Below, piece after piece: positions 14,201-30,201 of a stretch of DNA of 33,494 bases (position 1 is its first letter; every line of letters starts with the position of its first letter). The notes beneath the pieces were generated by a model. That model was given only the letters and a program-made list of their open reading frames with translations, did not search any database and was not told the origin of the DNA. The stretch is from Gammaproteobacteria bacterium. Lineage in GTDB: Bacteria; Pseudomonadota; Gammaproteobacteria; Poriferisulfidales; GCA-002705445. The stretch lies in NCBI GenBank assembly GCA_002705445.1, contig PAGR01000009.1, positions 14,926 to 48,419 of the forward strand, read 5' to 3'. Made by a program: the position numbers and the translations under genes.

Positions 14201-14220
14201 AAGCTTATTTTTTTTAGTAC

Positions 14221-14249
14221 ATTATATATAAATTTATGTATTTATACAA
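14221..14249 (-). promoter_or_regulatory. candidate sigma-70 promoter of lpxC
   Basis: On the minus strand TTGTAT (14249-14244), a 17-bp spacer and a perfect TATAAT (14226-14221) precede lpxC. Transcription would begin near 14214, leaving a leader of only about 14 nt. The -10 is exact, but the -35 matches in only three positions, and this spacer is very AT-rich. Confidence 0.4.
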
Positions 14250-14264
14250 AGTATTAACAGTCGA

Positions 14265-14280
14265 TGCATATTTCGTGCCA
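14265..14280 (-). promoter_or_regulatory. sigma-54-type (-24/-12) promoter motif upstream of lpxC
   Basis: The minus strand reads TGGCACGAAATATGCA. It matches the RpoN consensus TGGCACG-N4-TTGCA in all but one fixed position, with exact spacing between the -24 GG and the -12 GC. A start near 14255 would give an lpxC leader of about 55 nt. I saw no enhancer-binding site or activator gene in the window, so function is unproven. Confidence 0.45.
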
Positions 14281-14309
14281 AAAAAAAATTTTTGCAAAAT
14301 TTTGATAAA

Positions 14310-24144: not shown

Positions 24145-25524
24145 TTAAAATTTCCTCACTTTCAAAAAATCAACATATTCCTCTAATTTAGCTGATCTTG
24201 ATCCTTTTATAAGAATTCTTGTTGAAGATTTTATTGTATCATTTAAATATCTTTTCAAACTTTCAGTGTCATCAAAATGGTGACCATTATCCCCAAATGC
24301 TTTGGAGGCAAATTTACTATATTTTCCAATACTTAAAAATTCATTTATACCCATAGTCTTTGCATATTTGCCAATCTCTGAGTGGAAAAATTCTGTATCT
24401 CTTCCTAACTCTACCATATCACCCATTAAAACCAATTTTTTTTGATCAAGACTTGAAAGAAATTCAATTGCAACTTTAAATGAGTTAGGATTTGCATTAT
24501 AACAATCGTCAATTAAATGAATGTCTTTACTTAATTTATATAATTTCAGTCTCGATATAACTCCCTTAAATGACTCTAGTTTACTTATGATGTCTTTTAA
24601 TTTAAAACCTAAACATAATGCTATTGATGCTGCACATGCAGCATTTTGATAATTATGTTCACCATTAATAGATAGCTTAAATTTTATTTTAGAAAAAGAT
24701 TTTTTAAACTGATATAAATTTTTATTAATTCTCTGAATATAAAAAAATTCTGTCTTATAAAAAAAGTTTTTTAACTTTCTTTTAAATTTATAATAAAAGT
24801 CATTTTTATACCCAAAAAAAACTTTGTTACCTTTTTTAATGAATTTTCTATATTCTTTTTGATCATTTATTACAGAAAACCCATCTTTTTTTACATAATC
24901 AAATATACTATATTTCTCTTGTGCAGTATTATCTAGATTTTTAAATCCCTCTATATGGGCATAGCCAATGTTTGTAACAGCAGCAACATCAGGATTAATA
25001 ATATTTGCTAACGGTCTAATTTCTCCCAAATTATTCGCCCCAACTTCAACAATTACATAATCCTCATCTTGCTTCATGGAAAGAAGAGTTAAAGGAACAC
25101 CTATATGATTATTAAAATTGCCTTTTGTGTAACAAATTTTATGATCTGAAAGAATATGTGCAATCATTTCTTTCACTGTTGTCTTGCCATTAGAGCCTGT
25201 AATTGCAATAAATTTTGCTTTACTTCTACTTCTAACAAATCTACTCAAATCATGAAGAGCTTTTAAAGTATCATTTACAAGTATATATGGTTTTTTATCT
25301 AAATTTTTATCTATAATTTCTTTTGATATTACTAAACATGAGGCTTTATCAGCACAATCAGATATAAAGTTATGACCGTCATATTTTTTTCCAATTATGC
25401 AGATAAATACATCGTCTTTTTTTATTGTTCTAGAATCAATCGAAAAGTTTGAAACTGTGATGTCATTTCCATATAATTCACCGTTAATTGATTTTGCAAT
25501 GTCAGATAACTTATATTTATTCAT
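24145..25524 (-). CDS. murF: UDP-MurNAc-tripeptide--D-Ala-D-Ala ligase
   Basis: MurF adds the D-Ala-D-Ala dipeptide made by Ddl to complete the UDP-MurNAc-pentapeptide. It is 459 aa. The N-terminal domain has VSNFSIDSRTIKKDDVF, the ATP loop is GSNGKTTVKEM (110-120), and the central part has TNIGYAHIEGF. The C-terminal IDDCYNANPNSFKVAI is the most diagnostic MurF signature. ATG overlaps the murE stop by 4 bp (ATGA), so the pair is translationally coupled. Confidence 0.96.
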   Translation of the reverse strand: MNKYKLSDIAKSINGELYGNDITVSNFSIDSRTIKKDDVFICIIGKKYDGHNFISDCADKASCLVISKEIIDKNLDKKPYILVNDTLKALHDLSRFVRSRSKAKFIAITGSNGKTTVKEMIAHILSDHKICYTKGNFNNHIGVPLTLLSMKQDEDYVIVEVGANNLGEIRPLANIINPDVAAVTNIGYAHIEGFKNLDNTAQEKYSIFDYVKKDGFSVINDQKEYRKFIKKGNKVFFGYKNDFYYKFKRKLKNFFYKTEFFYIQRINKNLYQFKKSFSKIKFKLSINGEHNYQNAACAASIALCLGFKLKDIISKLESFKGVISRLKLYKLSKDIHLIDDCYNANPNSFKVAIEFLSSLDQKKLVLMGDMVELGRDTEFFHSEIGKYAKTMGINEFLSIGKYSKFASKAFGDNGHHFDDTESLKRYLNDTIKSSTRILIKGSRSAKLEEYVDFLKVRKF

Positions 25525-26978
25525 AATTTAAATGCTCTTTGCACCTCTTCCTTGTCAGAAAAATAAACTACTTTATTTTTCTGGATTTGTTTTTTCTCAT
25601 GTCCTTTGCCTAAAATTAATACTATTTTATTTTTATTTTTACTAGTAATGCAATATTTAATAGCACTACTTCTGTTAAAAATAACTCGATAGTTGCTATT
25701 TTTATTAATTCCCTCAACGATTTGGTTTACTATTTTATTAGGGTTCTCGTTTCTAGGGTTATCATTTGTAATAATAATTTCATTTGAATATTTATCTGCA
25801 ATACTACCCATAACTTTTCTTTTATCAGAACTTCTTTCTCCACCGCAGCCAAATAAGGTAATAATGTCTTTCTCGGGGTAATGTTTTTTTATTGAAACTA
25901 ATGTTTTCTTAATAGCATCTGGGGTATGGGCAAAATCAACAAAAACTATTGGAAAATTTTTCTTATAATATTTATTTAAACGTCCATCTAATGGTTTCAA
26001 ATTTGAAATTCTGTCGGAAAAAAAATTATATTCTTTTTTATTTTTAGCAATAGTTGCAATTGCTAATAAAATATTTTCAATAGTAAAGTTTCCATATAAT
26101 TTCGTACTAATATTTTTTTTCCCATATATAGAGTTTATACAAAAATTAATGCCACTTTCTAAATAAGTAATATTACTAGCATAAAATGTAGCACTTCTAT
26201 TATATAAAGATACAGTTCTTATATTTTTATCTTTTTTATATATATTAAAAATTTTTTTACCGTAGTAATTATCTATTGATACTACTTTTTTTTTATTATT
26301 GTGCTCATTAAATAGTTTGAGTTTCGTATTAAAATAATTTCTCATATTTTTATGGTAATCTAAGTGGTCTCTAGTTAAATTTGTGAAAATTACAGTATTA
26401 AAATCTAAACCAAATACTCGATTTTGGCTCAACCCGTGAGAAGAAACTTCCATAGCAAAATTTGATACGCCTTTTTTATTATAATTATTTATAATTTTAC
26501 ATGTATCAATTATATTTGGAGTTGTTAAGTTATTGCCTCTTACATCTGGGTAGATACCAGTTCCTAAAGTACCAATAATTCCACACTTTTCATTATTTTT
26601 TTCTAAAAGCTGAGATATATAAGATACCACTGAGCTTTTACCATTAGTGCCTGTAACACCAAAAATTTTAATGGAATTTTTTTTTATGTTAAAAAATCTT
26701 ATAGAAATTTTAGACATAAATTTTGTCAAATCTTTAACTTCGTAAAATAAGCAATTATTTTGAAGGTTTTTTAAATTGAAAGTTTTTGATTTTTCATAAA
26801 TAATTAATTTAGCCCCGTTATCAATTGCATCATTAATATATTTTCTTTTAAAGTTTTTTGTATTTTTGAGAAAAAAAATATAGTTACTTTTGATTTCCGT
26901 ACTATTTTCACTTAATCCTAATATATTTATATTATTTTTTGATAATCTCTTATCATTAATAAGATCATTTAATTTCAT
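25521..26978 (-). CDS. murE: UDP-MurNAc-dipeptide--meso-2,6-diaminopimelate ligase
   Basis: MurE adds the third residue of the stem peptide. It is 485 aa from the start used here. ATP loop GVTGTNGKSS (about 107-116), MEVSSHGL, NLTRDHLDYH and a carbamylated-Lys candidate near 219 are in place. The specificity motif is DNPRNENP (DNPR at 406-409), which in characterised enzymes selects meso-diaminopimelate over L-lysine. An in-frame ATG at 27026 would add 16 residues (MGKWCC...), but these are not family-like and would overlap the small lipoprotein gene in another frame. The MKLNDLI start at 26978 matches family N termini and lies 17 bp after that gene's stop. Confidence 0.94.
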   Translation of the reverse strand: MKLNDLINDKRLSKNNINILGLSENSTEIKSNYIFFLKNTKNFKRKYINDAIDNGAKLIIYEKSKTFNLKNLQNNCLFYEVKDLTKFMSKISIRFFNIKKNSIKIFGVTGTNGKSSVVSYISQLLEKNNEKCGIIGTLGTGIYPDVRGNNLTTPNIIDTCKIINNYNKKGVSNFAMEVSSHGLSQNRVFGLDFNTVIFTNLTRDHLDYHKNMRNYFNTKLKLFNEHNNKKKVVSIDNYYGKKIFNIYKKDKNIRTVSLYNRSATFYASNITYLESGINFCINSIYGKKNISTKLYGNFTIENILLAIATIAKNKKEYNFFSDRISNLKPLDGRLNKYYKKNFPIVFVDFAHTPDAIKKTLVSIKKHYPEKDIITLFGCGGERSSDKRKVMGSIADKYSNEIIITNDNPRNENPNKIVNQIVEGINKNSNYRVIFNRSSAIKYCITSKNKNKIVLILGKGHEKKQIQKNKVVYFSDKEEVQRAFKL

Positions 26979-26995: not shown

Positions 26996-27130
26996 TTATT
27001 CTTCGTTGGCAGCACCACTTACCCATTCAGCGGCAGCAGAAATATCTCTACCAATACCATCTACTGTATTGCAGCCGATCAGTAAAGTAAATCCAATAAT
27101 AATTATTCCATAGTATATTATATTTTTCAT
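26996..27130 (-). CDS. entericidin-like small lipoprotein
   Basis: This is a 44-aa lipoprotein gene too short for routine ORF calling. After two lysine/asparagine residues comes a hydrophobic run (about 4-18) ending in the lipobox LIGC, with lipid-modified Cys20. The 25-residue mature part starts CNTVDGIGRDIS and ends AAEWVSGAANEE. It closely follows the entericidin A/B pattern CNT-x-x-G-x-G-x-DI, then an amphipathic helix. E. coli EcnA and EcnB are antidote and bacteriolytic lipoproteins of the cell envelope. The ribosome-binding site AAGGAG sits six bases before the ATG, among the best in the window. It is 13 bp after the ftsZ stop and 17 bp before murE, so it must be expressed as part of the division operon. 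Whether it is toxic, structural or a stress lipoprotein is unknown. No partner EcnA/EcnB gene is next to it. Confidence 0.85.
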   Translation of the reverse strand: MKNIIYYGIIIIGFTLLIGCNTVDGIGRDISAAAEWVSGAANEE

Positions 27131-27143
27131 TATAATCTCCTTA

Positions 27144-28454
27144 TTAATCTGCTTGTTTTCTCAAGAAAGCTGGAATATCTAAAAAATCTAAATCTAACTC
27201 TCCATTGCTATTTTTCTTGTGCTTAATTTGATTTTCATTATTAACGTTTATTTCTTCTTTAGTTTCTTTAATTTCTTCAAAAGTTTTTTCAATTTTTAAA
27301 TCAGACTCGTACTCGTCCTGTTTATCGTAATTAAAAATGTTTTCTTCTACATTTATTTCGGCTTCATTTGTAATTGCATCTAAATTCTCAATATCATTGA
27401 CATCAGAAAAATTATCTAGTGATTTATCTAAGTTATTACTTACGTTATCTAAAACAATATCTACTTTTTGAGGTATTTTTTCTTCGACTTGAGCATTTCT
27501 CATTCCAGTTGCCACAACGGTAACTTTTATTTTATCTTCTAGCAGTTCATCAATTGTTGTTCCTACAATTACGTCAGCATCTTCCTCATCGACTAAGCTC
27601 CCAATATGATCACCTATAGCCTTAAATTCGCCGTTAGTTAAACTCCCATTAGATGTAATGTTGATTAACAAACCTTTTGCATCTTTAACATCAACATCCT
27701 CTAATAATGGGCTTGCAATTGCTTGTTGAATTGCATCCTCTGCCCTATCTATACCCTCTCCAATACCGCTTCCCATCATTGTGGAGCCAGCATTTGACAT
27801 AACACTTTTTACATCAGCGAAATCTAGATTAATTTCGCCAGGCTTCGTAATTAATTCTGCAATTCCGCCGACAGCCCTCTCAAGCACTGCATTGGACTGA
27901 TTTTTTGCTTCAGATAAAGGCATATCGTCGTCAGTGCAAAGTTTATCATTTGGAATTACAATTAATGAATCAACCTTACTTCTTAATTCTTCAATACCTC
28001 TTTCAGCATTAAACATTCTCTTTTTCTTTTCGTATTCCCAGGGTTTTGTTACTACTGCAACTGTTAATATTCCAAGTTCTTTTGCCAATTCAGCGATCAC
28101 CGGAGATGCTCCAGTTCCCGTTCCGCCTCCCATGCCAGCAGTAATAAACAACATATCGCAATTTTCTATTGATTCCTTTAATTTGTCTCTATCTTCAATT
28201 GCTGCCTGCCTTCCAATATCAGGATCTGCACCAGCACCTAGTCCTCTTGTAATATTATGACCTATATTACATTTTCTATTATCACTAACAGGATTGTTTC
28301 TTAAATCTTGAGCATCTGTATTTACACATATAAAGTCAACACCTGTAACTTTGTTGGTAATCATGTATTCAATTGCATTATTTCCACAACCTCCAACACC
28401 AACAACTTTAATATCAGCTTTTTGCTCTTTTGTATCAATTAGTTCGAAAGACAT
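27144..28454 (-). CDS. ftsZ: cell division GTPase FtsZ (relocated)
   Basis: FtsZ is the tubulin-like GTPase that forms the Z ring. It is 436 aa. GTP-binding motifs VVGVGGCGNN (17-26) and the tubulin signature GGGTGTG (109-115) are intact. The T7 synergy loop NLDFADV (209-215) supplies the catalytic acids. Residues about 320-420 form a variable acidic linker. The C-terminal peptide DIPAFLRKQAD binds FtsA/ZipA. The start is well supported by GGAGG six bases upstream of ATG. It overlaps the 3' end of ftsI by 20 bp. In other gammaproteobacteria I know, ftsZ follows ftsA and precedes lpxC; here it is fifth in the operon, between ftsI and the entericidin-like gene. No ftsZ remnant is visible between ftsA and lpxC. 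Confidence 0.98.
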   Translation of the reverse strand: MSFELIDTKEQKADIKVVGVGGCGNNAIEYMITNKVTGVDFICVNTDAQDLRNNPVSDNRKCNIGHNITRGLGAGADPDIGRQAAIEDRDKLKESIENCDMLFITAGMGGGTGTGASPVIAELAKELGILTVAVVTKPWEYEKKKRMFNAERGIEELRSKVDSLIVIPNDKLCTDDDMPLSEAKNQSNAVLERAVGGIAELITKPGEINLDFADVKSVMSNAGSTMMGSGIGEGIDRAEDAIQQAIASPLLEDVDVKDAKGLLINITSNGSLTNGEFKAIGDHIGSLVDEEDADVIVGTTIDELLEDKIKVTVVATGMRNAQVEEKIPQKVDIVLDNVSNNLDKSLDNFSDVNDIENLDAITNEAEINVEENIFNYDKQDEYESDLKIEKTFEEIKETKEEINVNNENQIKHKKNSNGELDLDFLDIPAFLRKQAD

Positions 28455-30201
28455 TATGTACCTCCAGGTTTTTTAAAGAATATTCATTTTGATTTCTAAA
28501 TTTTTGCGAAACTTTGTTTTGATATTTCAAAGTATTATCTGGTTTTATTTTTAAAATTCTTAAAGAGTCAGTCGCTACTTTTTTAAAAACTGGAGCAGCG
28601 ACATAACCTCCAAAATATTTTTTACTCTGAGGTTGATCAATAACAACAACTATTACTAATTTAGGGTCGTATAAAGGAGTTATACCTGCAAATAATGCTA
28701 TATGATCTTTATCACTATATTTATTTTTTTTACTACCGCCTACATATAATTCTGCAGTCCCTGTTTTACCTCCAACCGTGTAACCGTTTATAGCTGCTTT
28801 TTTAGCACTACCCTGTTGCACAACTTTTTTTATAACATTTTTTATTTGTTTAAACTCTGTTTCATATTTCTTATCTTCAAAAATTTGGGTTTTTTTATTT
28901 TTAATTAATTTTGGATTCACAACAAGCCCGTCATTTGCAATAGCACTATAAGCCTTAGCCAACTGAAGTGGAGTTACTTTACAATTATAACCTTGTGCAA
29001 GTGATCTTATATCAGATTTTCTCCATTCACTATGATGTGATAAATAGCCTTCAACTTCGGATGGAAAATTTAAATTAATTTTTTCACCTATGCCAACATG
29101 TTCCAACATGTCGTAAAATATTTTTTTGTTAATTTTCTCAAGAATCATTATGCTTCCAATATTACTGGATTTTATAATTATTCCCTCCGAAGTAAGTTCG
29201 CCAAAATTTTTAATATCTTGATAAGTCTTATTTCCCCAAACCTTATACCCAGGATTTGTATCAAAATTATCATTTAAATTTACTTTTTTTGAGTGTAATG
29301 CAGCTGCCAAAACAAAAGGTTTTATTGTAGAAGCCGGTTCTATAGAGTCTATTATTACTCTATTTCTTTCCTTCTCAGGACTATATGTTCTTCTATTATT
29401 TGGATCATAAGATGGATAACTAGCAGATGCTAAAATATCTCCGTTTGTAGTATCCATTATTACTATTGAGCCAGATTTTGCTTGAACATGATTAATTTGT
29501 TTTTTTAACTCTCTATATGCAATATATTGTAATCTTGTATCTATCGTTAAAGATAAATTTTTTCCTTCTATGGGTTTTCTTAAAATTGCAATCTCCTTTA
29601 CTATCTTTCCATGTAAATCTCTCATAATTTTTTTTCTACCATCTGTGCCTGATAAAATTTTATTATATGCTTTTTCTAAACCCATCACTCCATTATCATG
29701 AAAATCTGTAAGACCAATTAAATTTGACATTGACTCACCCTCTGGATAATACCTTTTAGGCTCTTTGATAAATTTAACTCCTTTTAGGTTTAGTTTTCTT
29801 ATTTCACTTGCAATACTTGCTTCTGTATATCTATTGATATATGTAAAACTTTTATTTTTTCTTTTTTTAACCTCAGTCAATAATTTATGAAAATCTTTAT
29901 TTAATAGGGCGCATAATTTTTTAATTGCTTCTTCGTCTTCGAGAAAATCTTTAGTATTAGAAACTATTAAGCTGTCTAAAAGAATACTCTCAGCTAAAAC
30001 AACGTTATTTCTGTCAACAATTGAGCCTCTGCTAGTCTTAATAACATACTCTTTTATCTCAAACTGACTTATTAAATTAGAGTACTTTTCTTTTTTTGTA
30101 TGCTGAAGATCAAAACTTCGAAAAATAATAATTAGAATTGATATTAAAATAAAAAATATCAGTGTATTAATTCTTGTAAATTTTTTATAGTTATTAATCA
30201 T
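28435..30201 (-). CDS. ftsI: septal transpeptidase FtsI (PBP3)
   Basis: FtsI is the class B penicillin-binding protein that cross-links septal peptidoglycan together with FtsW. It is 588 aa. One N-terminal membrane helix (about 11-28) is followed by the pedestal/dimerisation domain with RGSIVDRNNVVLA, and the transpeptidase domain. The active-site motifs are STIK with Ser291 (291-294), SSN (345-347) and KTGT (479-482). It starts 8 bp inside the end of ftsL and ends 20 bp inside ftsZ, so translation of the three genes is probably coupled. Confidence 0.97.
   Translation of the reverse strand: MINNYKKFTRINTLIFFILISILIIIFRSFDLQHTKKEKYSNLISQFEIKEYVIKTSRGSIVDRNNVVLAESILLDSLIVSNTKDFLEDEEAIKKLCALLNKDFHKLLTEVKKRKNKSFTYINRYTEASIASEIRKLNLKGVKFIKEPKRYYPEGESMSNLIGLTDFHDNGVMGLEKAYNKILSGTDGRKKIMRDLHGKIVKEIAILRKPIEGKNLSLTIDTRLQYIAYRELKKQINHVQAKSGSIVIMDTTNGDILASASYPSYDPNNRRTYSPEKERNRVIIDSIEPASTIKPFVLAAALHSKKVNLNDNFDTNPGYKVWGNKTYQDIKNFGELTSEGIIIKSSNIGSIMILEKINKKIFYDMLEHVGIGEKINLNFPSEVEGYLSHHSEWRKSDIRSLAQGYNCKVTPLQLAKAYSAIANDGLVVNPKLIKNKKTQIFEDKKYETEFKQIKNVIKKVVQQGSAKKAAINGYTVGGKTGTAELYVGGSKKNKYSDKDHIALFAGITPLYDPKLVIVVVIDQPQSKKYFGGYVAAPVFKKVATDSLRILKIKPDNTLKYQNKVSQKFRNQNEYSLKNLEVHNVFRTN

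What the first reader, a model, noticed from the sequence alone, without database searches (positions are those of the whole stretch)
26996..27130. Entericidin-like lipoprotein gene embedded in the division/cell-wall operon
A 44-codon gene with an excellent ribosome-binding site sits between ftsZ and murE. Its product has a lipobox and the CNT-x-x-G-x-G-x-DI signature of EcnA/EcnB lipoproteins. Those are envelope lipoproteins with bacteriolytic or antidote roles and are normally found elsewhere, often under stress control. Here the gene can hardly be expressed other than with ftsI, ftsZ and murE, which ties it to division. It might be a septal outer-membrane lipoprotein or part of an envelope-integrity switch. 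I do not know of this arrangement being described.
Basis: partly seen in the sequence, partly recalled or inferred. Interest (0 to 1): 0.72.

Follow-up and report, generated by a model that had tools for sequence, protein, structure and literature searches.

The report
Entericidin-like lipoprotein gene beside ftsZ
A family of tiny-genome marine bacteria has moved its main cell-division gene ftsZ and placed right behind it a 44-residue outer-membrane lipoprotein gene of the entericidin family, which has been kept even more strictly than ftsZ itself; it looks like a housekeeping envelope protein made along with division proteins rather than a toxin, but its job is untested.

Summary
The gene is real. 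It lies on the minus strand (26996-27130), between ftsZ and murE, with a strong ribosome-binding site. It is present in all 12 genomes held of its family (two genera), always as ftsI-ftsZ-ecn-murE. Its pN/pS (0.10) is lower than that of ftsZ (0.24) or murE (0.42), so it encodes a constrained protein. A profile built without any of these sequences finds it at E=5e-13, so it is a divergent entericidin, although it scores below the curated Pfam and NCBIfam cut-offs. New beyond the finding: ftsZ was relocated in this family. In sister families ftsZ sits in the canonical ftsA-ftsZ-lpxC place, and they have no detectable entericidin. In all 12 genomes ftsZ and ecn have strong ribosome-binding sites, while murE has none. 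The mature peptide is acidic and single-copy with no EcnA partner, which argues against a lytic toxin. Best reading: a housekeeping outer-membrane lipoprotein made in quantity alongside FtsZ. A septal role is possible but not shown. Entericidins inside another housekeeping operon (leuC-ecn-leuD) were seen in 14 of 83 loci from elsewhere in the phylum, so operon embedding alone does not imply a shared pathway.

The parts
26996..27130 (-). ecn: 44-aa entericidin-like lipoprotein precursor (stop codon at 26996-26998)
   Evidence: Translation; conserved in 12/12 family genomes; profile matches
27074..27130 (-). lipoprotein signal peptide, residues 1-19, lipobox LIG|C
   Evidence: Sequence; L17, G19 and C20 invariant or nearly so
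26999..27073 (-). mature 25-residue peptide CNTVDGIGRDISAAAEWVSGAANEE, net charge -4
   Evidence: most of residues 20-39 invariant in 13 rows; charge; helix predicted
27137..27143 (-). Shine-Dalgarno sequence TAAGGAG of ecn
   Evidence: a motif of at least 4 nt in 12/12 genomes
27144..28454 (-). ftsZ (relocated; overlaps ftsI by 20 nt)
   Evidence: TIGR00065 382 bits; positions in relatives
28435..30201 (-). ftsI
   Evidence: ORF list; synteny
25521..26978 (-). murE (ATG at 26978, no Shine-Dalgarno sequence; the longer ORF runs upstream through the end of ecn in another frame)
   Evidence: NCBIfam NF001126/TIGR01085
14201..14309 (-). ftsA-lpxC junction, where ftsZ sits in sister families

Best explanation
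The gene encodes a divergent entericidin-family lipoprotein. It is exported by Sec, lipidated at C20, cut by LspA and sorted to the outer membrane by Lol as a 25-residue acidic helical peptide. In the ancestor of this bacterial family, ftsZ left its place between ftsA and lpxC and came to lie between ftsI and murE, with ecn directly behind it. Since then ftsZ and ecn have formed a strongly translated pair inside the operon. The peptide most likely serves as an abundant, constitutive envelope lipoprotein (outer-membrane surface or packing), made in step with growth and division, and not as a toxin. Shown: gene, conservation, synteny, relocation, ribosome-binding-site pattern, presence of LspA and LolCE genes. 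Inferred: outer-membrane location, abundance, co-transcription, non-lytic envelope role.
For: 12/12 family genomes carry ftsI-ftsZ-ecn-murE. pN/pS is 0.104 for ecn, 0.240 for ftsZ, 0.386 for ftsI and 0.419 for murE; the mature part (pN 0.051) is tighter than the signal part (0.103). A profile without any family member hits it at 5e-13; hhalign probability 98.4%, E 7e-15. Mean Shine-Dalgarno duplex energy is -10.4 for ftsZ, -8.7 for ecn and +1.1 kcal/mol for murE. Order relatives outside the family lack ecn and keep ftsA-ftsZ-lpxC. LspA in 20/20 and LolCE in 19/20 genomes. Single copy and net charge -4. The entericidin relative Atu8019 is an outer-membrane, vesicle-borne surface lipoprotein without lytic activity (PMC7296081).
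Against: No expression, localisation or phenotype data were available for these uncultured bacteria. Shine-Dalgarno strength is only a proxy for translation. The absence of terminator-like sites on the coding strand and promoter-like matches at chance level fit co-transcription but do not prove it. Atu8019 loss had only a subtle effect, which fits poorly with the extreme conservation here and hints at a more important role.
Confidence: 0.62

Rival explanations
1. A septal lipoprotein: the product acts specifically in outer-membrane constriction or envelope remodelling at the division site, and is tied to FtsZ for dosage or timing.
For: Lasting ftsZ-ecn adjacency in two genera; both genes carry strong ribosome-binding sites; extreme conservation. 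Lpp is absent from the order, and no Pal match was found in 5 of the 12 family genomes, including two estimated 97% and 93% complete.
Against: Location only. Entericidins lie in leuCDB in 14 of 83 outside loci without an obvious leucine link. Pal is present in the other 7 family genomes, which also have ecn, so ecn is not simply a Pal replacement.
Confidence: 0.2
2. Translational role: the short, well-initiated ORF loads ribosomes that re-initiate at murE, which has no Shine-Dalgarno sequence of its own.
For: murE has no Shine-Dalgarno motif in 12/12 genomes and starts within about 20 nt of the ecn stop; murE in family f2 has GGAGG.
Against: Cannot explain the conserved amino acids, since synonymous sites are near saturation (pS 0.71). 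Many other genes in the window also lack the motif. Can coexist with a protein role.
Confidence: 0.12
3. A bacteriolytic toxin or its antidote, as proposed for E. coli EcnB/EcnA.
For: Family resemblance to EcnB and EcnA.
Against: One copy per genome, no tandem partner; acidic mature peptide; position in an essential growth operon; Atu8019 not lytic.
Confidence: 0.05

Closest known systems
E. coli EcnB / EcnA (entericidin B and A; efp-ecnA-ecnB-gdx locus)
   Same: Size, lipobox, CNTxxGxGxDI start of the mature peptide, single helix-prone segment
   Different: Single copy not a pair, acidic, EWVSG motif absent from EcnA/B, in the dcw operon and not a stand-alone locus
Agrobacterium Atu8019 (entericidin A/B family lipoprotein, PMC7296081)
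   Same: Lone EcnB-like lipoprotein without EcnA; described there as outer-membrane and partly surface exposed
   Different: No reported link to division; deletion nearly silent
Entericidin-like genes between leuC and leuD (seen here in 14 loci, e.g. L068, L086, L192)
   Same: Entericidin gene embedded in a housekeeping operon
   Different: Leucine operon, and no relocation of the host genes seen; here ftsZ itself has moved

Membership tests
Entericidin EcnA/B (Pfam PF08085) | Score above the curated gathering cut-off | tested here: not met
   14.3 bits against 23.3; 9 of 13 rows of the family alignment match weakly, best E 0.031
Entericidin EcnA/B superfamily (wider than the Pfam cut-off) | Homology to accepted entericidins by an independent profile | tested here: met
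   Profile A3 (E. coli EcnA/EcnB plus class members, no member of this family) finds it at E 5e-13, 48.8 bits; hhalign 98.4%
Entericidin EcnA/B superfamily (wider than the Pfam cut-off) | Lipobox cysteine followed by NT..G.G.D | tested here: met
   Invariant in all 13 rows
Entericidin B, NCBIfam PRK10081 (equivalog) | Score above equivalog cut-off | tested here: not met
   26.5 bits against 94, E 3.8e-6: not an EcnB equivalog
EcnAB toxin-antidote pair | Two tandem copies | tested here: not met
   Single copy in the genome; no second significant copy in relatives
EcnAB toxin-antidote pair | Bacteriolytic activity | not testable with these tools
   Needs an expression assay
Outer-membrane lipoproteins (Lol-sorted) | Lipidation and sorting machinery present, no Asp at +2 | tested here: met
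   LspA 20/20, LolCE 19/20; residue +2 is Asn. Actual location not testable here
dcw cluster genes | Conserved position inside the cluster on the same strand | tested here: met
   12/12 family genomes

The most novel reading that the evidence does not exclude
A division-linked outer-membrane lipoprotein: relocation of ftsZ created an ftsZ-ecn module in which an entericidin was recruited as an important, septum-associated envelope factor made in fixed proportion to FtsZ, in a lineage without Lpp.
Probability: 0.18. Interest if true: 0.75.

Novelty: new variant of a known kind. Interest (0 to 1): 0.45.

Why it matters
Entericidins are common (125 of 399 phylum genomes sampled), yet apart from a proposed toxin-antidote pair their function is unclear. 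A lineage in which a single copy is kept more strictly than ftsZ, right behind ftsZ, is a natural case for asking what the family does when it is not a toxin. It also documents an ftsZ relocation within the usually stable division cluster.

Tried and rejected
Chance ORF: rejected by conservation. Horizontal arrival of an ftsZ-ecn cassette: the tree of 48 FtsZ sequences groups family f1 with sister family f3 (99/93), and no outside locus examined has ecn beside ftsZ; the tree has long branches and unsettled bootstrap, so this is only an indication. Own promoter for ecn: promoter-like matches are at chance level, 39 found against 42.4 expected. Second ftsZ of the window genome (contig C10): its dcw genes are only 26-46% identical to the window's and lack ecn, so probably a binning contaminant. 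The mraZ pN/pS values, and the murF value for L011, are artefacts of my script (frame slip, partial locus) and were not used. Papers: searches found no description of an entericidin in a dcw cluster or in leuCDB; the library holds open-licence papers only.

Full report
Observation. The gene is on the minus strand, 27130 down to 26996. It has 44 codons, TAAGGAG 6 nt before the ATG, a lipobox LIGC and the entericidin start CNTVDGIGRDI. It lies 13 nt after the ftsZ stop and 17 nt before the murE ATG. The ORF finder's longer murE runs upstream into the end of ecn in another frame; I take the murE start to be the ATG at 26978, from which the family models match almost end to end.

Conservation. Among 94 genomes searched the gene was found in every member of the genus (11 genomes, the window's included) and in the one genome held of a sister genus, always with ftsI, ftsZ and murE in the same order. 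In the alignment, residues C20-T22, D24, G25, G27-D29 and S31-G39 are invariant across both genera, while FtsZ of the sister genus is 49% and MurE 37% identical to the window. Mean pN/pS over genus pairs is 0.104 for ecn, 0.240 for ftsZ, 0.386 for ftsI and 0.419 for murE. Synonymous sites are near saturation, so the constraint is on the protein, tightest in the mature peptide. These are simple Nei-Gojobori counts, not a codon-model test.

Family. The Pfam entericidin model scores 14.3 bits, below its 23.3 cut-off; NCBIfam entericidin B gives E 3.8e-6 but far below its equivalog cut-off. A profile made from E. coli EcnA and EcnB and ten other entericidin-like proteins, with no member of this family, finds the gene at E 5e-13, and the two profiles align end to end at 98.4%. 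The ten were themselves first picked up with the window protein, and 14 of the 17 rows of alignment A2, which holds them, match the Pfam entericidin model at E up to 1, best 2.7e-9. I therefore call it a divergent member of the entericidin superfamily and not an EcnB equivalog.

Relocated ftsZ. In the window ftsA is followed directly by lpxC, and ftsZ sits between ftsI and murE. The sister genus and another genus member read through the whole cluster show the same. In the two other families of the order ftsZ is in its usual place after ftsA, ftsI is followed by murE where both were read, and no entericidin is detectable. FtsZ of this family groups with that of sister family f3 (99/93), so ftsZ probably moved within the genome. 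Relocation of ftsZ and gain of ecn map to the same branch; whether they were one event cannot be told.

Translation signals. In the 12 loci compared, ftsZ and ecn have the strongest mean Shine-Dalgarno duplex energies of the genes scored (-10.4 and -8.7 kcal/mol), while murE has no motif in any (+1.1). Family f2 murE has GGAGG in three of three, while the f3 example has none. This suggests that ftsZ and ecn are both made in quantity, and that murE may depend on ribosomes arriving from ecn.

Envelope context. LspA (20/20) and LolCE (19/20) genes are present, Lpp is absent, and Pal is found in 15 of 20 order genomes. The mature peptide has net charge -4, against -1 for EcnB and +1 for EcnA. AlphaFold predicts a single helix from residue 2 to 37 (mean pLDDT 85, pTM 0.41), signal peptide included, which carries little functional information.

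Comparison. In samples of 369 class and 399 phylum genomes, 65 and 125 carry an entericidin-like match, this family's own included. Of 83 loci examined outside this family (57 from the class sample, 26 from the phylum sample), none has ecn inside a dcw cluster within the 1.5-3 kb read on either side; one has an FtsW-like hit about 2 kb away. Fourteen lie between leuC and leuD, and 11 lie by efp as in E. coli. Embedding in a housekeeping operon is therefore a recurring habit of entericidin genes, and the dcw setting is a new instance confined, in these samples, to one bacterial family. The literature offers a non-lytic outer-membrane precedent, Atu8019 (PMC7296081), and sigma-S-linked induction of ecnB in E. 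coli (PMC5105897).

Verdict.

Noticed in passing
window 14201-14309 and 27144-28454: ftsZ has been relocated from the ftsA-lpxC interval to between ftsI and murE in the whole family (12 genomes), unlike its sister families.
   Followed up: yes
L068, L083, L086, L089, L090, L093, L096, L099, L100, L106, L110, L121, L192, L200: Entericidin-like genes sit between leuC and leuD in many proteobacteria; the searches found no paper on it.
   Followed up: partly
L131 (contig C10 of the window genome): A second, distant dcw cluster with its own ftsZ in the window's assembly, probably a contaminant contig.
   Followed up: partly
genomes G001 and G005 (same genus): No Pal lipoprotein match in two closely related genomes estimated 97% and 93% complete.
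   Followed up: no
L049, L050, L061-L063, L065: FtsZ of sister family f2 lies on a very long branch in the FtsZ tree.
   Followed up: no
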